Positions 6,751 through 23,522 of a DNA stretch of 38,528 bases are shown here, in pieces. The notes beneath the pieces were generated by a model that saw only the letters and a list, made by a program, of their open reading frames with translations, made no database searches and had not been told where the DNA came from. The position numbers and the translations under genes were made by a program. The stretch is from an uncultured Acholeplasma sp. (GTDB lineage Bacteria > Bacillota_I > Bacilli_A > Acholeplasmatales > Acholeplasmataceae), in NCBI GenBank assembly GCA_937868795.1, contig CALMNM010000134.1, forward strand, positions 1 through 38,528. Reading direction: 5' to 3'. How positions within the stretch are numbered: the first letter of the stretch is position 1; each line of letters begins with the position of its first letter.

Positions 6751-8621
6751 AAAAATGGAAGATCACTTACAAGCAACGAGAAGCGTTGCTAGGTTACTTG
6801 TTTATCGGATTATGGATCATAGGTTTTGGTGTATTTGCTCTTTACCCCATTTTGTACTCGTTTTTCTTGAGTCTAAACCATGTGACGATACCAACGACAG
6901 GGATCAATTTAGAGTTTATTGGCTTTGAAAACTATCGTCATGCATTCGCGATCGATCGTGTGATGGTCCTTGAACTAGGAAACTTTGTTCAAGACTCTGT
7001 TTTGATGATGGTGATTATCAATGTATTCGCGTTGATTTTTGCGATGATCTTAAATATGAATATTAAGTTTAAGGGATTCTTTAGAACTGTTTTCTTTCTT
7101 CCTGTTGTCATCGTTTCTGGTCCAGTCATGCAGGAACTCTTGAACAATGAAGCCATCATTTTACCTGGAATTACCAATTATCAAGTCATTCAAATCTTTA
7201 CCGCCATTTTTGGTCGAGGATTCGGTGAGTTAATCGTTGGTGTATTCAGCAATTTGATTTACATGTTCTGGTTTTCTGGTGTTCAGATTATCGTATACTT
7301 GGTCATGCTTCAAAAGATGAACAAAGAAGTGTATGAAGCGTCAGAAATCGATGGAGCAAGTCCATGGGAACAATTTTGGAAGGTCACACTCCCATTTTTG
7401 AAGCCAATCATTTTGATTAACATGATCTATACGCTCGTTATGCTCGCTGGATTTTCAACCAATCCTATCATCATTTTGATCAAAGATTACATGTTTAGAA
7501 CTGGTGAAATCGGGAATGGTTTTGGCTTTAGTGCGGCACTCGTTTGGATCTACTTTGTAGCGATTGCCTTAATCGTCATCATCCTCTTTGCACTATTTTC
7601 CACCCGAGGTAAACTTCATTTTGTCAGAAATAGTGATCACTATGTCTTTGACATGTTGCGCTATCAAGAAAAACCATCACTTTTTGCTAAGCATCCGAAG
7701 ATCATGCATTACCGTAGAAAACTCATTGGGCGAAAAGGTACCGACGGGTGGATATTCAAAGGATTTACGTATTTACTCATTGCATCGGTGGGTTTCACCT
7801 TTCTCTATCCTTTTATTTTCCTTGCATTAAAGAGTTTACAATCCCCCTTTGATTTAATCGATAGCAGTGTTGGTCTCATTCCTACCTCACTCTATTTCGA
7901 TAACTATACCAAAGCTTTTGCCACCTTAGGATTTTTCAATGCACTTCAAGAAAGTGTGAAGATATCCTTCTTCCCCGCACTTGCTCAAGTGGTCAGTACC
8001 GCATTGATCGGCTATGGATTAGCTCGATTTGAATTTCCTTTCAAGAAAACGATCATCGTTCTCATCCTGATTACCTTCATCATTCCTGCACCTGTCTTAA
8101 TGATTCCAACGTATCTCATGTACCGAGATCTTGGCATCCTCGGTAATCTCGGATCATTTATCTATCCTGCACTCTTTGGTCAAGGCATCAAGAGTACCAT
8201 TTTCATCATGATTTTCTATCAATTCTTTAATACGATTCCTAAAGTGCTCGATGAAGCGGCGAGAGTTGATGGTGCAGGACCCATTCGTGTCTTCTTAAAA
8301 GTAAGTCTGCCTTTAGCTATCCCAGCGGTTGTCGTTGTCTTCCTCTTCAGTTTTGTCTGGTACTGGAATGAAACCTATCTCACGGGGCTATACATGCCTG
8401 AAGCACGGACATTACCTTTACAATTGTCAAGATTTGCAGATTCGTTTAGACAGCGTTTTGGCAATCCAGATCCTAACTCAGATGGATTTGTCGACCGTCT
8501 AAATGAAGCCATCTATATGGCAGGAACATTGATCAGTATTGTCCCATTATTATTACTATATTTTGGTTTACAAAAATGGTTCGTCGAGAGTGTCGATCGA
8601 TCCGGAATCACAGGAGAATAA
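6747..8621 (+). CDS. Fused ABC sugar permease (MalF-type + MalG-type in one chain)
   Basis: A 624-residue membrane protein, about twice the normal permease length. Residues 1-285 form one complete permease with an EAA loop EASEIDGASPWEQFWKVTLP near 197. A basic cytoplasmic linker follows at about 286-333. Residues 334-624 form a second permease with the MalG-like opening FLYPFIFLALKSLQSPFDL and a second EAA loop, EAARVDGAGPIRVFLKVSLP, near 502. The reading frame is continuous with no internal RBS/start at the junction that I can see, so it looks like a true fusion giving a fixed 1:1 heterodimer. The ATG overlaps the DUF5696 stop (ATGA). It would need an external ATPase. Whether it shares the binding protein with the two upstream permeases or has its own partner cannot be seen. 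Confidence 0.9.
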   Translation: MKKWKITYKQREALLGYLFIGLWIIGFGVFALYPILYSFFLSLNHVTIPTTGINLEFIGFENYRHAFAIDRVMVLELGNFVQDSVLMMVIINVFALIFAMILNMNIKFKGFFRTVFFLPVVIVSGPVMQELLNNEAIILPGITNYQVIQIFTAIFGRGFGELIVGVFSNLIYMFWFSGVQIIVYLVMLQKMNKEVYEASEIDGASPWEQFWKVTLPFLKPIILINMIYTLVMLAGFSTNPIIILIKDYMFRTGEIGNGFGFSAALVWIYFVAIALIVIILFALFSTRGKLHFVRNSDHYVFDMLRYQEKPSLFAKHPKIMHYRRKLIGRKGTDGWIFKGFTYLLIASVGFTFLYPFIFLALKSLQSPFDLIDSSVGLIPTSLYFDNYTKAFATLGFFNALQESVKISFFPALAQVVSTALIGYGLARFEFPFKKTIIVLILITFIIPAPVLMIPTYLMYRDLGILGNLGSFIYPALFGQGIKSTIFIMIFYQFFNTIPKVLDEAARVDGAGPIRVFLKVSLPLAIPAVVVVFLFSFVWYWNETYLTGLYMPEARTLPLQLSRFADSFRQRFGNPDPNSDGFVDRLNEAIYMAGTLISIVPLLLLYFGLQKWFVESVDRSGITGE

Positions 8622-8624
8622 TCT

Positions 8625-9944
8625 ATGAAAAAACTATTGATTATCGTCTTTACCTTGTGGGTACTCTTCGGTTGTACAGAAGTTGAAGAGCCCACACCTA
8701 CGCCACCCAGAGAATATGATGCAGCAGAACTCATCATGCTTGAAGAAATGGAAAACAGTTTTAATTTTTTCTGGGAGCAAGCCAATACCGATGAAGAAAG
8801 CGGTGGCTACGGACTTATTAATGACCGATATCCCTCCAATGTTTCACTTTCATCCATCGCCTCTGTAGGCTTTGGATTAGCAGGATTACCCATAGGGATC
8901 GAATATGAATGGATTACCTATGATGAAGGGTTTGAACGTGCTGAAAAAACTTTAGATACCTTCTTAGCTCTAGATAATTACCATGGATTCTTTTATCACT
9001 TTTTAAACAAGCAAACCGGTGAACGTGCAGGAACAAGTGAAGTTTCCATCATCGATACCGCCCTCTTTCTTGCAGGTGCCATTACCGCGGGAGAGTATTT
9101 TGGTGGTGATGTTAAAGAAAAAGCAGAAGATCTCTATGAACAAATCGATTGGACATGGTACCTTGATCCATCGAGAAACATGTTCTATATGGGCTATCGA
9201 CCTGAAAGTGGTTTTGCAGGTCATTGGGACTTCTATGGTGAACAATTGATATTATACGTATTAGGTGCTGGCGCTCCGAATGAAGCTTACCGGACGAATG
9301 TATCTACATACAATACCTTTATACGTAGACAAGCAAGTTATGGCGGAGGAGAAACATTCATTTCCAGTTGGTTTGGTAGCTTATTCACTTATCAGTTTTC
9401 TCATGCCTTTGTCGATTTTAGAAATCGTGAAGATGCACAAGGAGTCAACTGGTTTGAAAATAGCATCAACGCGACGATTGCTAACCGTCAATACGCAATT
9501 GATAGCCATAGTACATTCCAAACATTTACTGCGAACTCTTGGGGTATGACAGCTTCAGATGGCCCAAGAGGATACAGTGGTTATTATGGATCCAAGCCTT
9601 CAGGATATACCGACGATGCTCACCGCAATGATGGCACGATCGCTCCTGCCGGTGCTTTAGGGAGTGCCCCCTTTACCCCGGATTTAGTCAAGGGTGCCAT
9701 TCAGTATTTTGAAACTATTGGAGGACTTAAAGGTGAATATGGGTATAAAGATGCCTATAATTTTGATCAAGCCACACCATGGGTTGCAGGAGACATAATC
9801 GGAATAGATAAGGGAATCACGTTATTGATGCTCGCGAATTATTTCGATGGACTTGTCTGGGAACAATTCATGAAAAATGAATACGTCAACTTAGGTTTAG
9901 AGAGAATTGGTATTCTACCTGTCGAAATCAGTGAAACTGCATAA
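8625..9944 (+). CDS. Lipoprotein GH144 endo-beta-1,2-glucanase
   Basis: A 439-residue lipoprotein: MKKLL signal and lipobox LFGC with Cys17 as anchor, then a short Pro/Glu-rich tether (EEPTPTPP). The rest is a PF10091 ('glucoamylase-like') (alpha/alpha)6 barrel now classed as GH144. Recognisable blocks are ESGGYGLINDRYP, SVGFGLAGLP, FYHFLN, TSEVSIIDTALFL, GHWDFYGEQL, SWFGSLFTYQFSHAF and TASDGPRGY. GH144 enzymes hydrolyse beta-1,2-glucan, mostly endo and some releasing sophorose. Anchored outside the cell, it would shorten the polymer before uptake by the operon's transporters. RBS AGGAG lies 3 nt past the permease stop. The older name 'glucoamylase' would be misleading. Family assignment is strong; endo mode is inferred. 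Confidence 0.88.
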   Translation: MKKLLIIVFTLWVLFGCTEVEEPTPTPPREYDAAELIMLEEMENSFNFFWEQANTDEESGGYGLINDRYPSNVSLSSIASVGFGLAGLPIGIEYEWITYDEGFERAEKTLDTFLALDNYHGFFYHFLNKQTGERAGTSEVSIIDTALFLAGAITAGEYFGGDVKEKAEDLYEQIDWTWYLDPSRNMFYMGYRPESGFAGHWDFYGEQLILYVLGAGAPNEAYRTNVSTYNTFIRRQASYGGGETFISSWFGSLFTYQFSHAFVDFRNREDAQGVNWFENSINATIANRQYAIDSHSTFQTFTANSWGMTASDGPRGYSGYYGSKPSGYTDDAHRNDGTIAPAGALGSAPFTPDLVKGAIQYFETIGGLKGEYGYKDAYNFDQATPWVAGDIIGIDKGITLLMLANYFDGLVWEQFMKNEYVNLGLERIGILPVEISETA

Positions 9945-10036: not shown

Positions 10037-10990
10037 ATGGTGACTATTAAGGACGTTGCGAAAGCCTCTGGATATTCAATATCTACCGTCTCATATGCCT
10101 TGAATGATACAGGGAACATTCCCCAAAAAACCAAAGATAAAATCTGGAATGTCGCCAAAAAACTTAAATATTATCCCAACGCTGCGGCGAGAAACCTAAA
10201 AAACCGAAAAACGATGAACATCGGATTTTTCGTCTCGGGGTTTAGCGGACCTGTTTATCATAAGATTTATGATGGCATTGCCCAAGGTCTCGAAGGTAGT
10301 GACTATAATCTAATCGTCTCATTTTCTAAGAATGCAAAAAAGATGATCACGGAACGTCAGATTGATGCCGCCATCATTTTATGTCCTGCTGTTGAAGATA
10401 AAGTGATCAAAATTGCCCAAAATCTAGGGATGCCAACAATTTTACTCGATCGTGATCATCCAGGCGGTAATCATGTCTACACCAATGTCTTGAATTCCTA
10501 TGAAGGCGCGAAGATTGCGACCCAACATATCATCAGTCATGGAAGAAAAAAGATTGCATATCTCTCTGGAATTCTCGGTAGTCACGAAGACATGCAACGT
10601 TTTCAAGGGTACAGTGAAGTGATCGAAGCTTACGGGATGAGTCAAATGGTCTTCTTTGGTGATTTCACCGAAAAGAGCGGGTTAGACATCATTCAAAAAC
10701 TGGATGGAAATATTCCTTTTGATGGTATATTCTGTGCGAATGATGAAATGGCGATCGGCTTGATTAAGGGTTTACAGGCGATTGGAAAGAAAATACCTGA
10801 AGACATCAGTGTCATCGGATTTGATGATGTCGATGTCTCACAATACATCTGTGGAGGATTATCCACGATCAGTATCAATTATGAGTCTTGGGGGATATCG
10901 GTCGCTAAAGATATGCTTTCTATCTTATCCGGTCAAGAGGTCGAAAAAGAACAAATCGTTCCCGTCAGACTTGTACCAAGAAATACATAG
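10037..10990 (+). CDS. LacI-family transcriptional regulator (first)
   Basis: A 317-residue repressor. The N-terminal helix-turn-helix (TIKDVAKASGYSISTVSYALN, residues 3-23) is followed by the hinge helix (NAAARNLKNRKT) and a periplasmic-binding-protein-like effector domain (about 60-317) ending in the family motif SVIGFDDVDVSQ. RBS AAGGAG is 9 nt before the ATG. It resembles the second regulator at 16242 throughout (for example GPVYHKIYDGI against GPVFSETLEGI), and the residues that should read the operator (I, S, Y in SISTVSY) are the same. It is transcribed alone and ends at a strong terminator. It probably represses the transporter and/or glycosidase operons in the absence of a beta-1,2-gluco-oligosaccharide; the effector is not known. 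Confidence 0.92.
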   Translation: MVTIKDVAKASGYSISTVSYALNDTGNIPQKTKDKIWNVAKKLKYYPNAAARNLKNRKTMNIGFFVSGFSGPVYHKIYDGIAQGLEGSDYNLIVSFSKNAKKMITERQIDAAIILCPAVEDKVIKIAQNLGMPTILLDRDHPGGNHVYTNVLNSYEGAKIATQHIISHGRKKIAYLSGILGSHEDMQRFQGYSEVIEAYGMSQMVFFGDFTEKSGLDIIQKLDGNIPFDGIFCANDEMAIGLIKGLQAIGKKIPEDISVIGFDDVDVSQYICGGLSTISINYESWGISVAKDMLSILSGQEVEKEQIVPVRLVPRNT

Positions 10991-11015: not shown

Positions 11016-11040
11016 CAAAAAAAAGTGCCTTTCGGCACTA
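11016..11040 (-). terminator. Rho-independent terminator of GH35 gene
   Basis: Read on the - strand: AGTGCC, tetraloop GAAA (a stable GNRA loop), GGCACT, then eight T. Its 5' arm overlaps the TAG stop of the GH35 gene. It lies back to back with the + strand terminator just before it. Confidence 0.85.
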
Positions 11041-13323
11041 ATTAAAGTGGATGATGATGCGATCATGAAGCTTCGCATGGGTATTAGAACGTATGATAAC
11101 CATATCTTTTGTGTCATGAACGGTGTAAGAGGGGGATGGTGTGATCAAACGATTGACGATCAGTCTTATCTCATCTTCCTCTTGGGTTAAGCGAAATGCT
11201 AAATAATCGTCATGAATCTCCAAAAGTTCAGCGGTTGAATCGATGATTTTCCCTTGAGGAATTGTGAAATCGAGCGGTAACATCATCGCGTCTTGACTAA
11301 AGACATCCAGTGATTTACCTTGAAATAAAGGTTTTCCTCGATAAGAAATCTTTACTTTCTGATCAAAATGATCAAGATTGATGAGATGGAGTAAGTGGGG
11401 GTCTTTATCACCCTGCATTAAGGCAATAAGATGCCCTTGGTGATCCATCAATTGTAGGTTAGAAGTGACATCAAGATGATTTAGGATGTCTATTGTGACT
11501 TCCAAATGGCCTGGATAAGAAGACGATATGAGCGCGAATCGATTCCCTAAGACACCGACACTTTCGTTGGTATTCATCAATTGAAAAAGAGGTTGATCTT
11601 TTGATTCTGTCACTTGTGCAAAATAGGAACGAAACGATTGTGCTTCACGAATCGGATGACGACGTGTGAGTGTGATGAATGGAACTTCCCAATCAACCAT
11701 CACTGGTTTTGATCGGATACCTAAATAGTCAAGGAGTAATGTATCCTCTTGACCAAGAAGATTTCTTGTTGGGCATTCCCCAGCAAGAATGAGTTTTCCA
11801 CCTTGTTTATGATAATCAATAAGTTTCTGTTGAAGATCATTGGCCATGAAACGTGTCGTTGGGACAATCACCAATTTCGTTTTTTGTGGATCTATAGGTC
11901 GTCTTTCGAGATCGATCGCACCTAATTGGTAATTGAGCAACATCATCTGTTTGATGAGGGTATCCCAGACGACACCATTACGTTGAAATTCATGTGCGGT
12001 TTGGATGTCTTTAACGACGGGATTTTTTTCATCTGCAATCGTGGTCATGTAAATATCACTGATCCACGCAATCGCGATATCATCTTTCATAGGTTTTAAT
12101 TCACCAATATAAGGACTTAATGAGGTGAGCATGCGTGTGGTCCTTGCTAAGCGATCAAAGGTATAATTAGTCGTTCCATCAGGCTGAATAGGTGCAGCAT
12201 ATCCATGACGTTCACCTGTGATTGCGATAAAAGGACTATGTCTTAGAGCACCATATTTAAAACGCGGATTAAATCCTCCGGTAAGTAAGTAATAATTGAT
12301 CATTTTATAACCTTGCGCCATATTCATTCGCAATTTGAAATCTGCCGCAGATGGAAGTGTTCTAGAAGCCAGGTTATCACCAAAATTACCATCACCACAG
12401 TTAAATTCCAAAGAAGTTAGCGGTTGTTCACCTTCAAGGGTTGCCTCTAAAAACTCATGGATGATGTAATAGTCATGAACATCCTCAATGGTCAAATTTC
12501 CAAAATAGACATCTGTTCCTGGAATCATTTTGGTCTTTTGCCAGGTTAACATGAGTTGACTGATGCCGATCGGAAACGTTTTTCCTCTTCCATGAGAAGT
12601 CCCGTGAATGTTGATGAAATAATTCATGTCTTTCACACCTAAATTGATAAACATCGATTCGAGAGCTTTGGCATATGCAAGATAGTATTCTCTTTCGTAT
12701 TCCCCACAGCTCAAACGTTTTTGATAAAGATCGTTTTTGTGGATGCTATTTGGCATGAAATAAGGTGAATCGATTGATTGTCTTGAGACCCAAGGAAGCA
12801 TTCCAATTTCATTGTCGAGTTGAATCCCGATAATCGGACCTCCATGTTGTTGCAAATGATGACCAATCTCATGGAGTAATTGTTGGTACCAGGTATGAAC
12901 TTCGTGTAAAAATCCAGGATGAAGGTAATCCACAATGGGACCTTGAATAGGTTTGCCATCGATCGTTTTAGGCTTGACATCAGGATATTTTTCGAATACC
13001 CATTCTGGAATTCCTTCATTCATCAATTCAGCCATGACATAGGGCCCTGGTCTTAGAAAAACATAAAACCCTTTTTCTTTACAGAGTTCAATGAACCCAT
13101 TGAGGTCATAAATATCTGTTTTTCCGAAATCAAGATCGTTTTCTTTTTCGACATGGCCAATCCAGGGAACGTAGGTTGCAATCGTGTTAAGACCCATCGC
13201 TTTCGCAAGGTCAAGGTGCATGGACCATCTCGATTTAGGCAGCCTGAAATAGTGAACTTCACCAGCCATCAAGAGGATAGGCTTTTCGTTATCATAAAAG
13301 TTGTGATTGCGATAATAAATCAT
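11038..13323 (-). CDS. GH35 family enzyme, probable beta-1,2-glucosyltransferase rather than beta-galactosidase
   Basis: 761 residues from the ATG at 13323, chosen because GGAGG lies 9 nt upstream; an ATG 12 codons earlier has no RBS. The N-terminal TIM barrel has GH35 hallmarks: GEVHYFRLPKSRW (residues 21-33), FLRPGPYVMAEL (89-100) and the acid/base site GIQLDNE (Glu172). The nucleophile region is TSLEFNCGDG (Glu306), whereas classical beta-galactosidases have an E-F/W-x-x-G-W-F type motif. There is no signal peptide, so it is cytoplasmic. It faces genes for GH144, GH94 and GH3. A GH35 protein encoded beside GH144-type genes in Ignavibacterium album was shown to be a glycosyltransferase on beta-1,2-gluco-oligosaccharides, and I infer the same subtype here. 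Beta-galactosidase remains the alternative. Confidence 0.8.
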   Translation of the reverse strand: MIYYRNHNFYDNEKPILLMAGEVHYFRLPKSRWSMHLDLAKAMGLNTIATYVPWIGHVEKENDLDFGKTDIYDLNGFIELCKEKGFYVFLRPGPYVMAELMNEGIPEWVFEKYPDVKPKTIDGKPIQGPIVDYLHPGFLHEVHTWYQQLLHEIGHHLQQHGGPIIGIQLDNEIGMLPWVSRQSIDSPYFMPNSIHKNDLYQKRLSCGEYEREYYLAYAKALESMFINLGVKDMNYFINIHGTSHGRGKTFPIGISQLMLTWQKTKMIPGTDVYFGNLTIEDVHDYYIIHEFLEATLEGEQPLTSLEFNCGDGNFGDNLASRTLPSAADFKLRMNMAQGYKMINYYLLTGGFNPRFKYGALRHSPFIAITGERHGYAAPIQPDGTTNYTFDRLARTTRMLTSLSPYIGELKPMKDDIAIAWISDIYMTTIADEKNPVVKDIQTAHEFQRNGVVWDTLIKQMMLLNYQLGAIDLERRPIDPQKTKLVIVPTTRFMANDLQQKLIDYHKQGGKLILAGECPTRNLLGQEDTLLLDYLGIRSKPVMVDWEVPFITLTRRHPIREAQSFRSYFAQVTESKDQPLFQLMNTNESVGVLGNRFALISSSYPGHLEVTIDILNHLDVTSNLQLMDHQGHLIALMQGDKDPHLLHLINLDHFDQKVKISYRGKPLFQGKSLDVFSQDAMMLPLDFTIPQGKIIDSTAELLEIHDDYLAFRLTQEEDEIRLIVNRLITPSPSYTVHDTKDMVIIRSNTHAKLHDRIIIHFN

Positions 13324-13403: not shown

Positions 13404-13419
13404 ATCGAAACGTTTCAAT
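13404..13419. promoter_or_regulatory. LacI-family operator
   Basis: ATCGAAACGTTTCAAT is a CG-centred palindrome: the core GAAACGTTTC is perfect and seven of eight pairs match over 16 bp. It sits at the expected transcription start and just before the RBS (GAGGT, 13420-13424) of the cytosolic GH144 gene, where a bound repressor would block transcription. It matches the CcpA cre consensus poorly (no TG..CA ends), so one or both of the local LacI proteins is the likelier ligand. It could also act on the divergent GH35 gene. Confidence 0.65.
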
Positions 13420-13429
13420 GAGGTAAAAA

Positions 13430-14686
13430 ATGGACAAAAAACGGTTAGAGCAGCACCAAAAATTAGGATTTGAATATTATATGGCTTATACCAATCTGAA
13501 CCCCGAATCACAGGGCTTTGGACTGGTCGTCGATCACACACTTAGACCGAATGTAGCCAGCATTGCAGCAACTGGTTTTATGCTTTCGTCACTCGTCATT
13601 GGTGTGAACAATCATTATATTGACTATGATAAAGCAAAAGAAATTGCCGAAAGAACATTACAGTCAATGATTAACTTACCTCATGAACGAGGATGGATAG
13701 CTCATTTTCTTGACATGAATACAGGAGCTCGCTTGGGGAAGACGGAATATTCAACGATTGACACAGCGCTTGCATATTGTGGCGTGATCACCGTTGATAG
13801 TTTTTTCAATGATGACAAGATTCATGGGTTAACCAAAGTTCTCATAGATCGACTGGATTGGACATGGCTTGTGCATGAACATGAAGGTGTCAAACGTTTT
13901 TACATGGCATATAATCCTGACAGAGAAGGCGACTATGTGAGTGGTAAACCAGGGTTTATCCATCATTGGGGTATGTTTGCTGAACAACTGATGATGTATG
14001 TCATCATGGCGGGTAGTCATGATGCGCAAACAGCAAAAGAACTTTATCAAGGATTCAAACGTGAAAAGGGGACCTATAAAGATATCAGCTATATTTATAG
14101 TCCAGGTAATTCATTATTCGTTTATCAGTTTCCACTTGCATGGTTGGATTTGCGTGGTGTCTTCGATCAGAACGGTATTTGTTGGTTTGATAATGCCGAA
14201 AAGGCAACAAAAGCCCATGCACGTCTATCTCGTGACATAAAAGAAGAATACAAAACATTTGAGGGTAACTTCTTTGGATTCTCAGCTTCGGATTCGCCCA
14301 AAGGTTATCGTGTCTTTGGGGGGTTACCCAATCATGATCAAAAGGTGAGAACCGATGGAACAGCATCGACGTTTGCCATGATTGGTTCATTACCTATGAC
14401 ACCCAATCTTTCGATAAAAGCTATTACAGAGATGGAAAAACTACCTGAGTTGTGGGGACCCTTTGGGTTTTATGATGCATTCAATCTTTCGGATGAACCT
14501 TGGTTCAGCAAGCGCTATATATCCATTAATAAAGGATTGGAATTGTTGATGATCAATGCCTATCTAAGTCAAGATGTCTATCATGCATTTATGTCTCATC
14601 GGATCATCATCAAAGGAATGGAGGTACTCTCATGGATCAAACAGCCTGGTGGAAACGCGCCATCGTCTACCAAATCTATCCGTTAA
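13430..14686 (+). CDS. Cytoplasmic GH144 beta-1,2-glucanase
   Basis: 418 residues, same PF10091/GH144 fold as the lipoprotein at 8625 but without any signal. Parallel blocks include SQGFGLVVDHTLRP, ATGFMLSSLVIG, TEYSTIDTALAY, RLDWTWL, HHWGMFAEQL, SLFVYQFPLAWLDLRG, SASDSPKGY, RTDGTAS and the C-terminal ISINKGLELLMINAYLS. It would act inside the cell on imported beta-1,2-gluco-oligosaccharides or rings, perhaps as an exo-acting sophorose-releasing form or as a ring opener; the mode cannot be decided from sequence. RBS GAGGT is 5 nt upstream, right after the operator. Its last 55 nt overlap the next gene, giving a polar, probably unstructured tail (QPGGNAPSSTKSIR). Confidence 0.88.
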   Translation: MDKKRLEQHQKLGFEYYMAYTNLNPESQGFGLVVDHTLRPNVASIAATGFMLSSLVIGVNNHYIDYDKAKEIAERTLQSMINLPHERGWIAHFLDMNTGARLGKTEYSTIDTALAYCGVITVDSFFNDDKIHGLTKVLIDRLDWTWLVHEHEGVKRFYMAYNPDREGDYVSGKPGFIHHWGMFAEQLMMYVIMAGSHDAQTAKELYQGFKREKGTYKDISYIYSPGNSLFVYQFPLAWLDLRGVFDQNGICWFDNAEKATKAHARLSRDIKEEYKTFEGNFFGFSASDSPKGYRVFGGLPNHDQKVRTDGTASTFAMIGSLPMTPNLSIKAITEMEKLPELWGPFGFYDAFNLSDEPWFSKRYISINKGLELLMINAYLSQDVYHAFMSHRIIIKGMEVLSWIKQPGGNAPSSTKSIR

Positions 14687-16230
14687 GCTTTAAAGATTCC
14701 AATCATGATGGCATCGGTGATCTTCCTGGAATTATTAGTGAACTTGATTATCTTCAAAAACTTGGTGTGGATGTTATTTGGCTCTCACCTGTTTACCGTT
14801 CACCGATGGATGATAATGGCTATGATATCGCTGACTATTACCAAATAGACCCCATCTTTGGAACGCTTGATGACATGAAACGTTTACTCACCGAAGTTCA
14901 CAAACGAAAGATGAGACTCATCATGGATTTGGTGATTAATCATACATCAGACGAACACATTTGGTTCAAAGAGTCAAGAAAAGATGTCCATTCTCCCTAT
15001 CGTGATTATTACCTTTGGCGTAAGGAACCCACCGCAGTAGATTCAATTTTTGGTGGATCTGCGTGGACCTTAGACCCACAGACAAATATGTATTATTTCC
15101 ACCTATTTTCAAAACGTCAACCTGACTTGAATTGGCATCATCAACCGCTACGTCAAGCGATTTATGATATGGTCAACTGGTGGCTTGATCTTGGGATTGA
15201 CGGGTTTAGACTTGATGTCATCGACCTTATTGGGAAAGATATTGACAAGATGCAGTTTGCTGATGGGCCTTATTTAAACACTTACTTAAAGGAACTCTAT
15301 GACACATGCTTTAAAGGTAGAGACATCATGACAGTTGGTGAAATGCCAGGATTATCCATTGAGAGAGCTAGAGAAATCACAGGTGGCAAACATCCGTTCC
15401 TCAATATGGTCTTTCAATTTGCCCATGTGGGTTTAGATGAAGTCCAAGGTCAGGGGAAATGGGCTTTACGTCAATTAGATGTCAATGAATTCAAACACAC
15501 TTTTGAAAAACTTCAACATGCAATGCACCATGGGGGATGGAACTCTCTGTTTTTATCCAATCATGATCAACCTCGTGTTGTAAGTCGATATGGTAGTGAA
15601 CACTACCGAAAAGCATCAGCAAAAATGCTCGCAACCATTCTTTATGGCATGCAAGGGACACCCTATATCTACCAAGGTGAAGAGATTGGGATGACAGGTA
15701 TCAAAATGCCTATTGAAAATTATCGTGACTTAGAAACAAGACAAATCTATACGATTCTACAAGAAAAAGGATGGAAAGAAGAAGACATCATGCGTTCGAT
15801 TTATGCGAAAAGTCGTGATAATTCAAGAACACCCTTTCAATGGAACGATCATGAATATGCAGGATTCTCTATGCATGAACCTTGGCTTCAGGTCAACCCT
15901 AACTACAAAACACTTAATGCAGAAACTGATCGAAGTGATCGTGATGGCGTCTATCCATACTATCAAGAACTTATCAAACTACGTAAATCACATCGCATCT
16001 TTGATGAAGGTGATTTTCAGTTAATCTTTGAAGATCACCCAAAACTATTTGCCTATAAGCGTTCATATCAAGGACAAACGGTCTTAATCATCGGATCATT
16101 TTCTGATTTACCGATCACTCTTGATTTAACGGATTACCCTTTCAGTAAGATTTTATTATCCAATGATCACTCTGTAAAATTAGCACAACATATGACGATT
16201 CCACCTTATTATGCAGCGATTATCATTTAA
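14632..16230 (+). CDS. GH13_31 oligo-1,6-glucosidase-type alpha-glucosidase
   Basis: 532 residues, the normal length for the family, cytoplasmic. The (beta/alpha)8 barrel shows all GH13 motifs: DLVINHTSDEH (99-109), GFRLDVI with nucleophile Asp195, GEMPG with acid/base Glu237 and SNHDQPR with transition-state stabiliser Asp312. The residue after the nucleophile is Val196; in this subfamily Val marks alpha-1,6 (isomaltase/oligo-1,6-glucosidase) specificity, while Ala or Thr marks alpha-1,4. RBS GGAGGT (14620-14625) lies inside the end of the GH144 gene, which it overlaps by 55 nt. An alpha-1,6-glucosidase is unexpected among beta-1,2-glucan enzymes. It may remove the single alpha-1,6 link of certain cyclic beta-1,2-glucans, or simply serve isomalto-oligosaccharides. 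Confidence 0.9.
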   Translation: MDQTAWWKRAIVYQIYPLSFKDSNHDGIGDLPGIISELDYLQKLGVDVIWLSPVYRSPMDDNGYDIADYYQIDPIFGTLDDMKRLLTEVHKRKMRLIMDLVINHTSDEHIWFKESRKDVHSPYRDYYLWRKEPTAVDSIFGGSAWTLDPQTNMYYFHLFSKRQPDLNWHHQPLRQAIYDMVNWWLDLGIDGFRLDVIDLIGKDIDKMQFADGPYLNTYLKELYDTCFKGRDIMTVGEMPGLSIERAREITGGKHPFLNMVFQFAHVGLDEVQGQGKWALRQLDVNEFKHTFEKLQHAMHHGGWNSLFLSNHDQPRVVSRYGSEHYRKASAKMLATILYGMQGTPYIYQGEEIGMTGIKMPIENYRDLETRQIYTILQEKGWKEEDIMRSIYAKSRDNSRTPFQWNDHEYAGFSMHEPWLQVNPNYKTLNAETDRSDRDGVYPYYQELIKLRKSHRIFDEGDFQLIFEDHPKLFAYKRSYQGQTVLIIGSFSDLPITLDLTDYPFSKILLSNDHSVKLAQHMTIPPYYAAIII

Positions 16231-16241
16231 AGGAGAATGTT

Positions 16242-17201
16242 ATGCCAACGATTAAAGATGTAGCCAAATTAGCAGGAGTTTCGATCTCAACGGCATCCTA
16301 TGCCCTAAACGACCAACCCAACGTACATCCAGAAACAAAAGCAAGGATTCTTCATGCTGCTAAAGAACTGAGTTATCACCCACACGGCATCGCACGTAAC
16401 TTAAAAAAACGACAAACCAATAATGTTGGCGTATTTATTTACGCTTTTGCGGGTCCTGTCTTTTCAGAAACGTTAGAAGGAATTCGTCAAACATTGCAGG
16501 AACATGATTTCAATATCATCGTCAGTTCGGGGACGTCCTCAATGAACCTATTATTAGAACGCCAGGTCGATGGCGCGATCGTCTTTGACAATCATATCTC
16601 AGATGATGTATTAAAGCATTATGCTGCCCATGGCATGCCTTTAATCGTCTTAGATCGCTTAATTCAAGAAGAAAACATTTATACATCATTAATCGATAAT
16701 GAATCCCTGGTTTATCATCTAATGTCCGATATGATTAAAAAAGGGTATCAACGTCTTGCTTATTTAGCTGGACCGGAGAACGCCTTCAATAATCGCATGC
16801 GCTATGTCGGTTTTGAAAAAGCGCTAAAGGAACATCGTCTTACCCCATTTGGCTATTTTCAAGGTGACTTCACCATTCAAGGAGGTTACCATATTGGAAA
16901 AGAATTGATCAAAAGAAAGAATCGACCCGATTTTATCTTTTGTGCCAACGATGAATCCGCCATCGGTTTGATGCAAGCCCTCAAGGAATCAAACATTCGA
17001 ATCCCAGAAGATATCGCGGTTGCTGGATTCGATCACATCGCGATTGGTCAGCTGATAACACCTAAATTGACAACGATCTCAATCGACCATAAAGCATGGG
17101 GAAAAATGGTCGCCAAAGTGATGATTGACATCTTAAAAGGCGAAAAAGTGACAAGAAGTTTTAGACCTGAAGGAAAGGTATTGGTGAATGAATCATGTTA
17201 G
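16242..17201 (+). CDS. LacI-family transcriptional regulator (second, in the catabolic operon)
   Basis: 319 residues. Helix-turn-helix TIKDVAKLAGVSISTASYALN at the N-terminus, hinge helix GIARNLKKRQT, then a sugar-binding effector domain ending in AVAGFDHIAIGQ and TTISID. Excellent RBS (AAAGGAG, sharing bases with the stop codon of the GH13 gene). It is a paralogue of the regulator at 10037, with the same predicted operator-reading residues in the recognition helix. Being inside the operon whose promoter carries the 13404 palindrome, it probably controls its own synthesis. Its effector may be a short beta-1,2-gluco-oligosaccharide such as sophorose, by context only. Confidence 0.92.
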   Translation: MPTIKDVAKLAGVSISTASYALNDQPNVHPETKARILHAAKELSYHPHGIARNLKKRQTNNVGVFIYAFAGPVFSETLEGIRQTLQEHDFNIIVSSGTSSMNLLLERQVDGAIVFDNHISDDVLKHYAAHGMPLIVLDRLIQEENIYTSLIDNESLVYHLMSDMIKKGYQRLAYLAGPENAFNNRMRYVGFEKALKEHRLTPFGYFQGDFTIQGGYHIGKELIKRKNRPDFIFCANDESAIGLMQALKESNIRIPEDIAVAGFDHIAIGQLITPKLTTISIDHKAWGKMVAKVMIDILKGEKVTRSFRPEGKVLVNESC

Positions 17202-18121
17202 ACCGATTAATACCAATCAAAAAACCCGATGATTTTGATCGTTTTTGGCAGCACGCAAAACAAGAACTCAACCATATCCCCTTTCGTTATCATGTGATAG
17301 AAACATATAGAAATGAAGACTTTGAAGAAGTCCAAAAGTTTTCTTATCAAGGAGCGAAAAACGAAACCATATACGGTATGCAACTTATCCATGAAGGTAT
17401 ACCTCGTCCTACGATGGTCTTCTTTCACGGTTATGGTTGGCACAAAGGTGAACCAAATGACTATCTCGATTATTACCAAATCGGATATAACATAGTCTCA
17501 ATCGATATCAGAGGTCAAAAAGGATTGACCAAAGATCGTTACCCTTATCACAGTGGTGATGAGCGATTAATGACAAGAGGAATTATGAATCCTGATGAGT
17601 ATTATTTAAAGCATGTTTACCAAGATAGCTTGCAGCTGATCCGTATAGTAAAGACTCTTTCCTACGTAGAACAAAAACATATCATCCTACATGGAGGGTC
17701 TCAAGGGGGTGGAATCGTCATTGCTCTTGCAGCACTGGAGGATGTCGCCTATGTTTTTGCAGATGTACCGAGTTATACCCATTTCAAAGGCAGATTGATT
17801 GGAAAACATGGATCAGTGAGAGAGATAGCAGATTATATCTCTGAACACCATCTTGATCCAGACAAGATCCTTGATAATCTTCAATATTTTGACAATATCC
17901 ACTTTGCCCCAATGATCAAAGCCCCAATTTTTAGCTCAGTGGGTTTAAAGGATCAGATATGCCCAGCAGAATTTTTTGAGATGGCTTATGATACCATCAC
18001 TGCTAAAAAAGTTCTCTTTCGCTATCCTGAGGGTGGGCATGAAGGTGGTGGTGCTGTGCATCATCAACAAAAACTAAAACAGTCCAAGGAGTATTATGAT
18101 GAATACGAAAGAACTACTTAA
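17195..18121 (+). CDS. CE7-family acyl (acetyl) esterase
   Basis: 308 residues of an alpha/beta-hydrolase of the acetyl-xylan-esterase / cephalosporin-C deacetylase family (AXE1). The family's RGQ motif is at 106-108 (SIDIRGQKG); the nucleophile elbow is GGSQGGG with Ser169, and the likely triad partners are Asp253 (GLKDQICP) and His282 (EGGHEGGG). There is no signal peptide, so it acts in the cytoplasm on imported sugars. It starts 7 nt inside the lacI stop (ATGTTAG) with only a weak RBS, suggesting translational coupling. In this locus a substrate carrying O-acyl groups on beta-1,2-glucan is plausible, but that is inference; CE7 enzymes are broadly active on small acetylated sugars. Confidence 0.87.
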   Translation: MLDRLIPIKKPDDFDRFWQHAKQELNHIPFRYHVIETYRNEDFEEVQKFSYQGAKNETIYGMQLIHEGIPRPTMVFFHGYGWHKGEPNDYLDYYQIGYNIVSIDIRGQKGLTKDRYPYHSGDERLMTRGIMNPDEYYLKHVYQDSLQLIRIVKTLSYVEQKHIILHGGSQGGGIVIALAALEDVAYVFADVPSYTHFKGRLIGKHGSVREIADYISEHHLDPDKILDNLQYFDNIHFAPMIKAPIFSSVGLKDQICPAEFFEMAYDTITAKKVLFRYPEGGHEGGGAVHHQQKLKQSKEYYDEYERTT

Positions 18122-20228
18122 ATCCTTAACAAGAGAAGAAAAAATTGGTCAGATGCTTCAGATCGCCCCCTTCTTTTTTGTCAAACATGCACATGTGGAA
18201 GTTGCAGGTCATTTAAAAGCCCTTAACCTCACAAAAAAGCAGATTTTTGAAGCGGGATCCGTCCTTGGTATTGGTAACGGTCATGAAATGATTGAGGTTC
18301 AAGAAGTTTTTCTCAAAGAGAGCAGACATAAGATTCCCCTTTTATTCATGGCAGATATTATTCATGGTTATGAAACTATTTTCCCAGTCCCACTAGGATT
18401 AGCATCATCCTTTAATCCCAAATTAGCCAAAAAGGTCGCACGGATCTCTGCACTAGAAGCAGCAACTTCAGGAATTCATGTAACATTTTCACCGATGGCA
18501 GATTTATCAAGAGATCCCAGATGGGGTCGTGTTGTTGAAAGTTTTGGTGAAGATCCATATCTCAATGGACAATTTTCATCAGCCATGGTGCAAGGCTATC
18601 AAGGGGATGATCTCAAACAAGAAAATAACCTCGCATCCTGCGTTAAACACTATGCTGCTTACGGAAAATCAGAAGCAGGACGCGATTATAATACCGTCGA
18701 TTTATCACGTCTTTCACTACACTATGATCATATGGAAGGCTATCGTAAGGCAATTGAAGCTGGAGCGCGTTTGATCATGACAAGTTTTAATGTTGTCGAT
18801 GGCATCCCTTCAACGGTCAACAAATACTTACTTAGAGATGTGTTAAGAGATTTGTGGCATTTTACAGGTGTGACCATCACAGATTATGATTCACTCCATC
18901 AGGTGATTGCTCACGGTGTGGCTGAAGATGATCTACAGGCTGCACTTCGCGGGATTGATGCAGGCCTTGATATCGAAATGGCCTCGACATGTTATGTAAA
19001 CTACTTAAGTGAACTTGTCGATCAAGGTCTCGTCGATGAAACATTAATTGATGACGCATGTCTTCGTATTTTAGATTTGAAAGAAGAACTTGGTCTATTT
19101 GATAATCCTTACAAACATGCTCATCCTGAACGTGCGACTCAGATTGTTCGCTCTAAGGAGCATTTAGATAGTGCACGAAAGGTCGCACACGAATCCATCG
19201 TGCTTTTGGAAAATCGTCAGGTGCTTCCTCTAAAAAGTGGAACGAAGGTTGCACTCGTTGGACCTTACGCGACCAATAGAGAGACCAACGGGCCATGGAG
19301 TTGGCATGGTAATAATGCATTGAATGCCAATTTACAAGAAGCGCTCAATCATGATCTTGAGATCATCTATATCAATTCAAGTGAAGTGATTAGTGATTAT
19401 CAAACTGATGATTTTAATGTGATAGAAGACGCAGATGTCGTTCTTTATGCGTGTGGTGAGACCATTCATGAATCAGGCGAAGCGCATAATCGAGCGAAGA
19501 TAGCATTACCAAGAGATCAAGAAAATCTTTATCACGTTTTAAAGAAACATGCGAAAAAGATAGTGACCATCATTTTTGCTGGACGACCCCTCATTCTTAA
19601 TGAACTTACATCAAGTGATGCCCTTGTTTACGCATGGTTCCCTGGAAGTGAGGGAGCGTATGCACTGAGTGATCTTCTCTTAGGGCGGATGAATCCATCA
19701 GGAAAACTTCCGATGAGTTTTCCACGTCATGAAGGTCAAATTCCACTTTATTACAATCATCTGAATACAGGACGCCCCTATGATCCAACACATCGAAATC
19801 CATTTACAAGTTATTATCTAGATGTCCCTAATACACCACTGTATCCCTTTGGCTATGGACTCTCCTATACCTCATTCGAACTAGGATCTTCTATGCTATC
19901 TTCAAATCATATGTCTTTAAACGAAACAGTCGAATTAAAGGTTCAAATAAAAAATACCGGAATGATGCGTGGTCAAGAAGTGGTTCAACTCTACATTCGA
20001 GATCATTTTGCATGGATTGCACGACCCATTAAGGAACTAAAAGCATTCCAAAAAGTGATGCTTGAACCCGGTGAAGAAGTAACTCTCACGTTTAACATCG
20101 ATAAAACGATGCTTGGATACTACACCCAAGATGGATTATTTGTGGTAGAACCTGGTCATTTTGATTTGATGATTGGGACAGATAGCGATCATCTTACTAC
20201 CCATAAACTGACCTTAAAAAAGGAGTGA
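18096..20228 (+). CDS. GH3 beta-glucosidase (probable sophorose-type)
   Basis: 710 residues with the complete three-domain GH3 layout: a TIM barrel (about 1-330) with DPRWGRVVESFGEDPYL, CVKHYAAYG and the nucleophile block TITDYDS (Asp263); an alpha/beta sandwich (about 360-560) with GETIHESGEAHNR holding the probable acid/base Glu; and a C-terminal fibronectin-III-like domain (about 610-710). There is no signal peptide. AAGGAG (18086-18091) is 4 nt before the first ATG and 7 nt before the second (18099), so the second may be the true start. It overlaps the esterase gene by 26 nt. In Listeria innocua a GH3 enzyme adjacent to the GH94 phosphorylase prefers sophorose; the same pairing here suggests it splits sophorose and short oligomers to glucose. 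Confidence 0.9.
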   Translation: MMNTKELLKSLTREEKIGQMLQIAPFFFVKHAHVEVAGHLKALNLTKKQIFEAGSVLGIGNGHEMIEVQEVFLKESRHKIPLLFMADIIHGYETIFPVPLGLASSFNPKLAKKVARISALEAATSGIHVTFSPMADLSRDPRWGRVVESFGEDPYLNGQFSSAMVQGYQGDDLKQENNLASCVKHYAAYGKSEAGRDYNTVDLSRLSLHYDHMEGYRKAIEAGARLIMTSFNVVDGIPSTVNKYLLRDVLRDLWHFTGVTITDYDSLHQVIAHGVAEDDLQAALRGIDAGLDIEMASTCYVNYLSELVDQGLVDETLIDDACLRILDLKEELGLFDNPYKHAHPERATQIVRSKEHLDSARKVAHESIVLLENRQVLPLKSGTKVALVGPYATNRETNGPWSWHGNNALNANLQEALNHDLEIIYINSSEVISDYQTDDFNVIEDADVVLYACGETIHESGEAHNRAKIALPRDQENLYHVLKKHAKKIVTIIFAGRPLILNELTSSDALVYAWFPGSEGAYALSDLLLGRMNPSGKLPMSFPRHEGQIPLYYNHLNTGRPYDPTHRNPFTSYYLDVPNTPLYPFGYGLSYTSFELGSSMLSSNHMSLNETVELKVQIKNTGMMRGQEVVQLYIRDHFAWIARPIKELKAFQKVMLEPGEEVTLTFNIDKTMLGYYTQDGLFVVEPGHFDLMIGTDSDHLTTHKLTLKKE

Positions 20229-20234
20229 AGCAAT

Positions 20235-23200
20235 ATGCTGTTGAACAATCAAATCAAGACACAATCGATTGAAAGCCAAGGACTATTCGTCAATTTTTTA
20301 GAATCAGGTGATGTTTATGACATTACCTATCAAGATGCACAGATCAACCTGTTACATGGAAATCTTGTCGATGGTGGAACCATCAATCTCTATTTACGCG
20401 TTTTCGAGGATGAATCCATTAAGTATACCCCACTTTTTGGTCGCCACTCACCTTCTCATTTTTTGATTCATGAAAACAAAGCGATTTATCAAGGGTCTTT
20501 TGAGGGGATTCATTATCAAATCGTTTGGTTTTTGACTGGTTTAAGATTTGATTTAAACGTCAAATTATCAAGTGACCTTCCAAAAAAGGTGGATCTCATG
20601 TTTGGTATGGATTTAGCGATCACCTCTAAAGGAAGTGTACTGAATAGTGAACCTTATACTGTTCAGTATATCGATTATAAAGTCTTTGAACATGACTTGG
20701 GCTACACGCTTTGTGCACGACAAAATCAGGGAAGAAGTCAATACTTTCAATTAGGGTCATTCAATAAAACGATAGGCTATACCACCGATGGATTTCAATT
20801 CTTTGGACTTTCGGCCAAAGAAACAGGCATTCCTGAAGCGATGAATCAAGAAAGACTCATCTCAGACATCTATCAATATGAATTTGCCTATTTTGCACTC
20901 CAAACTGAAGCATTATCTATCTCTCAACATCATCAATCAGTCACCTTTTATGGACTATATGAACCCGAAGATCATGATGTGATTAAAAAGGCAAAAAAGG
21001 TTGAACCTATCAAAACGAGTGATGTCTTTATACTTAATACTGATAACAAAGAAGTGTCGATCGGCTTTATTAATCCTAAACATCGCTTAAATGGATTATC
21101 ATTGTCACATAAAGAATGGGATCGACTTTATCCACTTAGGGATCAGCTTGAAACAAAAGAGCAACAATGGTTATCTTTTTTTACCGATGACCATCACCAT
21201 GTGGTCGCCAAAGAAAAAGAATTACTTCTTGAAAGACAACATGGGAATCTTTTGATTCATGGGGATCTAGAGCATGTCTCAGATCGCGTAATGGCAACAA
21301 CCAATTGGATGTTTGGTGTCTTTCATTCTCACGTAGTGGCTGGAAACAGTAGTTTTAATAAGCTTTTAGGTGACTTAAGAAATCCTTTGAATTTACAGAC
21401 CATTTCCGGGTTAAGAATTTATGTCAAAATCGATGGAATTTATCATTTGTTAGGCATCCCCAGTGCGTATGATATGGGTGGAGCGACAACGCGTTGGATT
21501 TATCAACAAGAAGATCGGTGTATTGTCATCAGTAGTTTTGTCGATTCCTATCGTTTAGTTCAAGGACTTAACGTCGAAGTTTCTGGACAACCTATAGAGG
21601 ATATGATCATTTTGCAACAAGTCCTTATGAATGTCAATGAACATCTCTCCGATATTCCTTATGATGTAGAGGGTAGAAATATCATTTTCTATCCACCTCA
21701 AGGTTCGATGATGGCCAATCGTTATCCTGAATTAAAGTATCGTTATCAACTTGATCAGGACTTTGACTTAGTCAGTGAAGAAGATGCGTTTGGCACCCAC
21801 TCCCATCAAGGTTTGTTACTTCTTCACGTACAACCTAAAACCTCGTTAACCCTATGGATTCAAGCGACTTATGATAAAGAGTTTGAACCCATTGAAACAT
21901 TGACTTATGAAGAAGCGAATCGACAAGGAACTGACCGATTACTAGGGTTTACGCATCAACTAAACCTAAGCCATCCTACGCTTCAACACGAGATGAACTT
22001 GCTCATGCATACGATCTTTTGGTATACCCATAATGCACTCATCCATTACGCATCACCTCATGGACTCGAACAATACAATGGTGCAGCTTGGGGAACAAGA
22101 GATGTCTGTCAAGGACCCTTCGAATTTTTCATGGCGAATCAACATTATGACATCGCAAGAGAAATTTTAGTGAAAATATATGGTAGACAATTTATTGAAA
22201 ACGGGGATTTTCCTCAGTGGTTTATGTTTGATCGCTATTATCAAATTCAAGCACACGAAGCGCATGGTGATATCATCATCTGGCCACTTCGGGCACTCGC
22301 TTATTACATCAAAGGCACCGAGGATCTTTCGATTCTTGATGAGTTTACGAGTTACATGTCGATTCAAAAAAACGATTTTGTCGATCAAGTATCGATCTAT
22401 GATCACGTCAAAAAGCAGATTCAAGCGATTGAAGAAACATTTATCCCAGGAACGTATTTACCACGTTATGGTGGCGGAGACTGGGATGATACATTACAAC
22501 CAGCCAATCACGATTTGACGAAAAAGATGGTTTCAGGATGGACAGTAGCTCTCCTCTATGACACCCTAAAGACTTTTGGGGAAGAGATTTTTAAGTATGA
22601 TAACGAGTATGCAAAACAACTCAATCTTTTAGCACAAAAGATCAAAGCAGATTATCAAAAACATATGGTCGTCGACGGAATACCTGCGGGTTTTGTCGTC
22701 TTTGATAAAGAAAAGATGTATCTTTTACATCCAAGAGATCAAAAAACGGGTTTGAAATATCGACTACTTCCACTGACCCGTTCAATGATTGCTGAATTTG
22801 TCCAACCAAAAGACATCAATCCTTATTTACATGTCATCAATCAATACTTAAAACATCCCGATGGTGTTCGCCTGATGGATACGACGGTTGAATATCGAGG
22901 TGGTATCAAAACGTATTTCACACGAGCAGAAACAGCAGCAAACTTTGGTCGTGAAATTGGACTCCAGTATGTTCATGCTCACATTAGATATATAGAAGCC
23001 TTAGCGAAGATAGGACATGCAGATGAAGCCTATGACGCACTGATGGTCATCAATCCGATTCTCTTATCTGAACGAGTTAAAAATGCGTATTACCGACAAT
23101 CTAACATGTATTTCTCGAGTTCTGATGCTTGGTTCAAAGATCGTTATCAGGCCAGAAGAGAATTTGATCGGGTCAAAAAAGGTGACATTCTTGTCAAAGG

Positions 23201-23522
23201 TGGATGGCGTCTATACTCCAGTGGACCTGGTATATATTTAGCACAACTCATTTCAAATCTACTCGGTTTACAATCTTATCATGGTCACTTATTACTCGAT
23301 CCTGTTTTACCGAAACGCTTGGATGGGTTAACCGTTTCTTTTAGAAAAAATGAGCGAACTTACCGAATCTCTTATCAACGTGGTCGTGATCAGATTTTAC
23401 TCAATGGTATAAGTGCTCCTTATCAATCACGGTTTAATTTATATAAACAACCCTCTGTCTTGATCGATAGACATGATCTAGAACAGAAGAATGAAATCAA
23501 CCTAATCTTTATTAGACAATAA
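20235..23522 (+). CDS. GH94 phosphorylase, probable 1,2-beta-oligoglucan phosphorylase
   Basis: 1095 residues, close to the roughly 1100 of the Listeria 1,2-beta-oligoglucan phosphorylase and much longer than cellobiose phosphorylase (about 800). N-terminal beta-sandwich domains occupy about 1-560. The (alpha/alpha)6 catalytic barrel (about 570-1010) contains YNGAAWGTRDVCQGP and the GGDWDD block (residues 747-752) with the candidate catalytic Asp. A final beta domain closes the chain. It resembles the phosphorylase half of cyclic beta-1,2-glucan synthase but has no glycosyltransferase or membrane part, so it is a free cytosolic enzyme: beta-1,2-gluco-oligosaccharide + phosphate to shorter chain + alpha-glucose 1-phosphate. 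RBS AAAGGAG overlaps the GH3 stop. It is the last gene of the operon and is followed by a terminator. Confidence 0.88.
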   Translation: MLLNNQIKTQSIESQGLFVNFLESGDVYDITYQDAQINLLHGNLVDGGTINLYLRVFEDESIKYTPLFGRHSPSHFLIHENKAIYQGSFEGIHYQIVWFLTGLRFDLNVKLSSDLPKKVDLMFGMDLAITSKGSVLNSEPYTVQYIDYKVFEHDLGYTLCARQNQGRSQYFQLGSFNKTIGYTTDGFQFFGLSAKETGIPEAMNQERLISDIYQYEFAYFALQTEALSISQHHQSVTFYGLYEPEDHDVIKKAKKVEPIKTSDVFILNTDNKEVSIGFINPKHRLNGLSLSHKEWDRLYPLRDQLETKEQQWLSFFTDDHHHVVAKEKELLLERQHGNLLIHGDLEHVSDRVMATTNWMFGVFHSHVVAGNSSFNKLLGDLRNPLNLQTISGLRIYVKIDGIYHLLGIPSAYDMGGATTRWIYQQEDRCIVISSFVDSYRLVQGLNVEVSGQPIEDMIILQQVLMNVNEHLSDIPYDVEGRNIIFYPPQGSMMANRYPELKYRYQLDQDFDLVSEEDAFGTHSHQGLLLLHVQPKTSLTLWIQATYDKEFEPIETLTYEEANRQGTDRLLGFTHQLNLSHPTLQHEMNLLMHTIFWYTHNALIHYASPHGLEQYNGAAWGTRDVCQGPFEFFMANQHYDIAREILVKIYGRQFIENGDFPQWFMFDRYYQIQAHEAHGDIIIWPLRALAYYIKGTEDLSILDEFTSYMSIQKNDFVDQVSIYDHVKKQIQAIEETFIPGTYLPRYGGGDWDDTLQPANHDLTKKMVSGWTVALLYDTLKTFGEEIFKYDNEYAKQLNLLAQKIKADYQKHMVVDGIPAGFVVFDKEKMYLLHPRDQKTGLKYRLLPLTRSMIAEFVQPKDINPYLHVINQYLKHPDGVRLMDTTVEYRGGIKTYFTRAETAANFGREIGLQYVHAHIRYIEALAKIGHADEAYDALMVINPILLSERVKNAYYRQSNMYFSSSDAWFKDRYQARREFDRVKKGDILVKGGWRLYSSGPGIYLAQLISNLLGLQSYHGHLLLDPVLPKRLDGLTVSFRKNERTYRISYQRGRDQILLNGISAPYQSRFNLYKQPSVLIDRHDLEQKNEINLIFIRQ

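What the first reader, a model, noticed from the sequence alone, without database searches (positions are those of the whole stretch)
11038..13323. GH35 protein with a non-galactosidase nucleophile region
The acid/base motif (DNE, Glu172) is normal, but the nucleophile region reads LEFNCGDG instead of the Trp-rich galactosidase form. A GH35 protein beside GH144-type genes in Ignavibacterium album is a beta-1,2-glucosyltransferase. Automatic annotation would call this one beta-galactosidase, probably wrongly. A transferase could resize chains for the phosphorylase.
Basis: partly seen in the sequence, partly recalled or inferred. Interest (0 to 1): 0.6.

Follow-up and report, generated by a model that had tools for sequence, protein, structure and literature searches.

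The report
Probable beta-1,2-glucan enzyme, not galactosidase
A gene that automatic annotation would probably call a beta-galactosidase instead belongs to a little-studied enzyme group that most likely moves or removes glucose units on the rare sugar chain beta-1,2-glucan, and it sits in a widespread gene cluster for using that sugar.

Summary
A 761-codon GH35 gene lies on the minus strand (ATG at 13323, GGAGGA Shine-Dalgarno). Glu172 is the acid/base; the nucleophile Glu306 sits in LEFNCGDG, where galactosidase-type GH35 proteins of the same class have EFWxGW. The best solved match by sequence and predicted fold is the Ignavibacterium album beta-1,2-glucosyltransferase IaSGT (E 1e-46; Z 49), ahead of archaeal glucosaminidases (Z 40) and galactosidases (Z 37 or less). 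All seven catalytic/subsite -1 residues of IaSGT are kept in 70 relatives. In 160 genomes of the order, all 17 with this gene also carry the phosphorylase SOGP. It shares a divergent promoter region, with a conserved palindrome, with a GH144-like gene. Refinement: the protein is not an IaSGT orthologue. It belongs to a separate, uncharacterised subfamily (100/100) lacking IaSGT's Arg349 and Trp279; a second, IaSGT-like GH35 occurs beside it in some Bacillota operons. Most likely role: retaining cytosolic beta-1,2-glucosyl transfer that converts sophorose, which the phosphorylase cannot use, back into Sop3. Transfer versus hydrolysis, and the acceptor, cannot be settled by sequence.

The parts
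11038..13323 (-). GH35 protein, subfamily A of the beta-1,2-glucosyltransferase-like group (761 aa from ATG 13323; longest ORF to 13359)
12808..12810 (-). Glu172, acid/base (IaSGT Glu176), preceded by Asn171 (IaSGT Asn175)
   Evidence: alignment; IaSGT roles from PMC8861115
12388..12411 (-). LEFNCGDG with nucleophile Glu306 (IaSGT Glu343)
13407..13416 (.). palindrome GAAACGTTTC, probable LacI-family operator between divergent GH35 and PF10091b
   Evidence: same palindrome before GH35 in 8 of 16 loci of the order; binding untested
11024..11039 (-). terminator-like hairpin ending the GH35 unit
   Evidence: consensus scan only
8625..9944 (+). PF10091a, GH144-type beta-1,2-glucanase, lipoprotein-like N-terminus (LFGC), best match XcSGL (XCC2207)
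10037..10990 (+). LacI-family regulator
13430..14686 (+). PF10091b, second GH144-type protein, no signal peptide
16242..17201 (+). LacI-family regulator
18096..20228 (+). GH3 beta-glucosidase
20235..23522 (+). [quoted passage not shown]

Best explanation
The protein is a cytosolic retaining GH35 enzyme of the beta-1,2-glucosyltransferase-like group. It takes a non-reducing-end glucose from sophorose or short beta-1,2-oligoglucans on to Glu306 with acid/base help from Glu172, then passes it to another beta-1,2-oligoglucan or glucoside. Net effect beside SOGP: two sophoroses, a dead end for the phosphorylase, become glucose plus Sop3, which SOGP can phosphorolyse. This would be the beta-1,2 counterpart of amylomaltase working beside maltodextrin phosphorylase. 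Shown here: family placement, catalytic and subsite -1 residues, predicted fold, cluster and co-occurrence, shared divergent promoter region. Inferred: transfer rather than hydrolysis, chain-resizing role, LacI control.
For: Best solved relative is IaSGT: sequence E 1.4e-46 against 1e-38 for GlmA and 1e-22 for galactosidases. The predicted model (pLDDT 88, pTM 0.89) matches IaSGT-sophorose best: Z 49 over 637 residues, GlmA Z 40, galactosidases Z 37 or less and mostly over the barrel alone. Y52, E102, N175, E176, N275, E343 and Y378 of IaSGT are kept in all 70 subfamily A members, one gap aside. PF22369 GLMA second domain present. 61 of 75 named loci of 12 kb or more have SOGP or PF10091 within about 10 kb, against 0 of 7 galactosidase-type GH35 loci. 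All 17 gene-bearing genomes of 160 in the order have SOGP and PF10091; the 10 loci without such neighbours all lie in genomes with SOGP and/or PF10091. SOGP, GH3 and GH35 all lack signal peptides. LpSOGP has no phosphorolytic activity on Sop2 (PMC5309861); IaSGT disproportionates Sop2-5 without hydrolysis (PMC8861115).
Against: Only about 25% identical to IaSGT and in a separate clade, so the nearest characterised activity is remote. Arg349 and Trp279, which hold the +1 glucose in IaSGT, are not kept; Gln106 of +2 is Glu. A GH3 beta-glucosidase in the same cluster can presumably already remove sophorose. 24 SOGP genomes of the order lack the gene. Bxy_22780, a GH35 beside GH144, turned out to be a beta-1,2-galactosidase (PMC11739564), so neighbourhood alone can mislead.
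Confidence: 0.6

Rival explanations
1. Beta-1,2-glucosidase: same active site and substrate, but water is the acceptor, so it hydrolyses sophorose or the non-reducing ends of beta-1,2-oligoglucans.
For: Subsite -1 is kept while IaSGT's firm +1 glucose site (Arg349, Trp279) is not. 16 of 31 named loci with SOGP have no GH3 within about 10 kb, whereas 19 of 20 loci with SOGP but without GH35 do have GH3, as if either enzyme could clear sophorose.
Against: The window and most Acholeplasma loci hold both GH3 and GH35, so a second hydrolase would be redundant; the nearest characterised relative shows no hydrolysis (PMC8861115). The GH3 counts compare different lineages and do not look elsewhere in the genomes.
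Confidence: 0.25
2. Transferase or glycosidase acting on a beta-1,2-glucosyl unit attached to something other than a plain glucan, for example an alpha-linked glucose end or an aglycone, in parallel with the GH13 of the cluster.
For: The +1 region differs from IaSGT and from subfamily B throughout subfamily A; both subfamilies coexist in 9 of 75 loci, suggesting different acceptors; Methylococcus has subfamily A directly after a GH13 gene; IaSGT prefers aryl/alkyl glucosides as acceptors (PMC8861115).
Against: No direct sign of any particular acceptor; the GH13 is also present in clusters that lack GH35.
Confidence: 0.1
3. Ordinary GH35 beta-galactosidase, or the beta-1,2-galactosidase type of Bxy_22780.
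For: Fold and Pfam family are GH35; Asn before the acid/base Glu is shared with galactosidases.
Against: Galactosidase-type rows form a separate clade, 100/100; EFWxGW absent, Cys of the galactosidase and GlmA pocket is Met; the CjBgl35A group, in which Bxy_22780 falls, scores Z 30 against 49 for IaSGT; neighbours of seven galactosidase-type genes include none of the beta-1,2-glucan genes.
Confidence: 0.03
4. Exo-beta-D-glucosaminidase (GlmA type).
For: GlmA is the second-nearest solved family; NF041127 matches at 165 bits.
Against: Score far below the family cut-off of 1500 bits; Asp178, read as the amino-group determinant, is Asn here; the neighbours are beta-1,2-glucan genes.
Confidence: 0.02

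Closest known systems
IaSGT (IALB_1185), beta-1,2-glucosyltransferase, EC 2.4.1.391, PDB 7VKX/7VKY (PMC8861115)
   Same: GH35 with GlmA-like domain order, no signal peptide, all seven catalytic/subsite -1 residues, beta-1,2-glucan gene cluster
   Different: about 25% identity, separate clade; Arg349, Trp279, Gln106 not kept; Leu100 is Met; longer loop after the nucleophile; window cluster has a GH3 beta-glucosidase, which the discussion of that paper says the I. album cluster lacks
Subfamily B GH35 (EFQxG loop) of Bacillota beta-1,2-glucan clusters (uncharacterised)
   Same: same group, shared residues, same clusters; 9 of 75 named loci hold both
   Different: closer to IaSGT (up to 32% identity, all best BLAST hits)
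Archaeal GlmA exo-beta-D-glucosaminidases (5GSM, 8OUG)
   Same: fold over about 700 residues, catalytic pair
   Different: Asp instead of Asn before the acid/base, Cys instead of Met; substrate chitosan
Bxy_22780 beta-1,2-galactosidase (PMC11739564)
   Same: GH35 in a cluster with GH144
   Different: falls in the CjBgl35A galactosidase group; cluster is a SusCD locus

Membership tests
GH35 | Glyco_hydro_35 profile with two catalytic Glu | tested here: met
   PF01301 143.9 bits, cut-off 27; Glu172 and Glu306
beta-1,2-glucosyltransferase (IaSGT) | Y52, E102, N175, E176, N275, E343, Y378 (residues the authors call conserved among homologues) | tested here: met
   all seven kept
beta-1,2-glucosyltransferase (IaSGT) | Arg349 and Trp279 at subsite +1 | tested here: not met
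   the authors report Arg349 as not conserved in many homologues and Trp279 binds by its main chain, so neither defines the group
beta-1,2-glucosyltransferase (IaSGT) | same clade as IaSGT to the exclusion of GlmA | tested here: inconclusive
   93/87 and 90/87, GlmA+IaSGT not rejected (p-AU 0.15)
beta-1,2-glucosyltransferase (IaSGT) | orthology with IaSGT | tested here: not met
   window type + IaSGT as one clade rejected, p-AU 0.032; first 15 BLAST hits of IaSGT are all subfamily B, window ranks 85th
beta-1,2-glucosyltransferase (IaSGT) | transfer of beta-1,2-glucosyl without hydrolysis | not testable with these tools
   needs assay
GH35 beta-galactosidase | placement within galactosidase clade | tested here: not met
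   galactosidase rows separate 100/100
GH35 beta-galactosidase | Trp-rich EFWxGW nucleophile loop and Cys in the -1 pocket | tested here: not met
   LEFNCGDG and Met97
GlmA | Asp before the acid/base Glu | tested here: not met
   Asn171 in all 70 subfamily A rows
GlmA | NF041127 cut-off 1500 bits | tested here: not met
   165 bits

The most novel reading that the evidence does not exclude
Subfamily A is a second, functionally distinct beta-1,2-glucan GH35 enzyme, different from IaSGT in acceptor or reaction, working alongside SOGP across Bacillota and wall-less Acholeplasmataceae; operons that hold both A and B would then carry two GH35 enzymes with divided tasks on the same glucan.
Probability: 0.4. 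Interest if true: 0.55.

Novelty: new variant of a known kind. Interest (0 to 1): 0.42.

Why it matters
IaSGT is the only GH35 beta-1,2-glucosyltransferase described in the papers read here. The window protein stands for a large related subfamily (one genome scan found 450 relatives of the wider group) that is likely annotated as beta-galactosidase and is tied to SOGP. If it resizes chains, it solves the sophorose dead end of the phosphorolytic route without losing the bond energy to hydrolysis, and gives a simple test of how beta-1,2-glucan catabolism saves energy in small-genome, wall-less bacteria.

Tried and rejected
Considered beta-galactosidase and GlmA readings: both rejected on residues and tree. 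Considered plain orthology with IaSGT: rejected. Tested whether the neighbourhood is a general GH35 feature: 0 of 7 galactosidase-type loci have the beta-1,2-glucan genes. Tested whether loci without such neighbours break the link: all 10 genomes still carry SOGP and/or PF10091, two of them in 2844- and 2893-aa frames of cyclic-glucan-synthase size. The exact placement of IaSGT stays open because of its long branch and because only parts of two GlmA sequences were available. I. album itself was not among the 80 loci returned, so its sequence was taken from the printed PDB alignment. The profile match of A1 to IaSGT at 1e-200 is circular (A1 contains part of IaSGT) and is not used. No held paper mentions DUF5696. 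The palindrome count inside the window alone is not above chance when one mismatch is allowed; its support comes from conservation of position in relatives.

Full report
WHAT IS THERE. The window is a whole contig of a 1.99-Mb genome of Acholeplasmataceae kind (nearest named relative an Acholeplasma MAG with a 79% identical protein). The gene runs 13323 to 11038 on the minus strand in an otherwise plus-strand cluster. It has its own Shine-Dalgarno sequence and a terminator-like hairpin at 11039-11024, next to one that ends the LacI gene from the other side, so it looks like a single-gene unit divergent from PF10091b.

FAMILY. Pfam gives GH35 plus the GlmA-like second domain PF22369. Against solved structures the order is IaSGT, GlmA, galactosidases. 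The AlphaFold2 model (mean pLDDT 88.3, pTM 0.89, 27 sequences) gives the same order: IaSGT with sophorose Z 49.0, rmsd 3.0 over 637 residues; GlmA Z 40.1 over 713; galactosidases Z 36.6 or lower. Foldseek alone does not separate IaSGT from GlmA clearly (about 1e-48 both).

ACTIVE SITE. With residue roles taken from Kobayashi et al. 2022 (PMC8861115), all seven residues named as catalytic or subsite -1 are present: Tyr51, Glu99, Asn171, Glu172, Asn238, Glu306, Tyr345 in window numbering, and in all 70 subfamily A rows apart from one truncated row. Leu100, thought to disfavour an axial O4, is Met here, as the paper says for many homologues; galactosidases have Cys. At +1 the picture changes: Arg349 and Trp279 are not kept, and the nucleophile is followed by a longer loop, CGDGNFGD. 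So the glucose donor site is predicted with some confidence, the acceptor site is not.

TREE. Subfamily A (window) is a clade at 100/100 and the galactosidase-type rows are another at 100/100. IaSGT, A and B join against GlmA with 93/87 and 90/87, short of full support; IaSGT has a long branch. IaSGT with A alone is rejected (p-AU 0.032); IaSGT with B is not (0.24). IaSGT's best BLAST matches are all subfamily B, the window protein coming 85th at 25% identity. The correct statement is a sister subfamily, not an IaSGT orthologue.

CONTEXT. The window cluster holds a lipoprotein-type GH144-like enzyme, a GH144-like protein without signal peptide, GH3, SOGP, a GH13, an AXE1 esterase, two LacI regulators and sugar ABC transporter parts. 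In 75 named loci with at least 12 kb, 47 have PF10091, 31 SOGP, 31 GH3, 52 DUF5696; 61 have SOGP or PF10091. Seven galactosidase-type loci have none. In 160 genomes of the order, 17 have the gene, 41 SOGP, 42 PF10091, and all 17 are in both sets; chance of nesting in the SOGP set is 4e-12 without correction for kinship. 24 SOGP genomes show no GH35 of this kind, and in most of those fetched PF10091a and PF10091b stand side by side where the GH35 would be, so the gene is an optional part.

REGULATION. The exact palindrome GAAACGTTTC lies between GH35 and PF10091b in the window (13407-13416) and before GH35 in 8 of 16 loci of the order; it also precedes PF10091b in 9 of 18 loci without GH35, and GH35 in 18 of 72 other loci; it precedes SOGP, GH3, GH13, PF10091a or DUF5696 in none of the loci of the order tested. 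Background is 31 in 702 kb. A LacI-family operator is the likely reading; which regulator binds is unknown.

MECHANISM. LpSOGP phosphorolyses Sop3 and longer but not Sop2 (PMC5309861). IaSGT disproportionates Sop2-5 by single glucose transfer with no measurable hydrolysis (PMC8861115). An enzyme of this type beside SOGP would turn 2 Sop2 into glucose and Sop3 and so recover one Glc1P per Sop3. The comparison with amylomaltase and maltodextrin phosphorylase is my inference from general knowledge. GH3, present in the window, offers the hydrolytic route; 19 of 20 loci without GH35 have GH3 beside SOGP, while 16 of 31 named SOGP loci with GH35 do not. That fits overlapping roles on sophorose but compares different lineages and does not separate transfer from hydrolysis.

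CAUTION. Bxy_22780 shows that a GH35 beside GH144 may be something else (PMC11739564). There the tree disagreed with the context; here residues, tree and structure agree with it. Some subfamily A genes lie in other surroundings: Gfo/Idh/MocA and isomerase genes in Fictibacillus and Bacillus, directly after GH13 in Methylococcus; their genomes still carry SOGP and/or PF10091.

Noticed in passing
2552-8621: Between the ABC permeases and the GH144-like lipoprotein lie an NHL-propeller/TPR protein and a DUF5696 protein, both with signal-peptide-like N-termini; this pair is conserved in beta-1,2-glucan clusters across Bacillota (DUF5696 in 52 of 75 named loci), and no held paper mentions DUF5696. 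They may be extracellular parts of the glucan importer.
   Followed up: partly
6747-8621: One 624-aa protein with two permease stretches where most relatives have two separate permease genes: an apparent permease fusion.
   Followed up: partly
14632-16230: GH13 resembling trehalose-6-phosphate hydrolase but below that family's cut-off (630 against 799 bits) is kept in most beta-1,2-glucan clusters of the order, with or without GH35; its role in this pathway is unexplained.
   Followed up: no
17195-18121: AXE1-type acetyl esterase inside the cluster, also in several relatives: the glucan imported may carry acyl groups.
   Followed up: no
L090, L092, L097, L117, L118, L126, L132, L081, L098: Two different GH35 subfamilies (A and IaSGT-like B) in the same locus; in Acholeplasmataceae genomes G011, G012, G014, G017 and G074 they lie in separate clusters.
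   Followed up: partly
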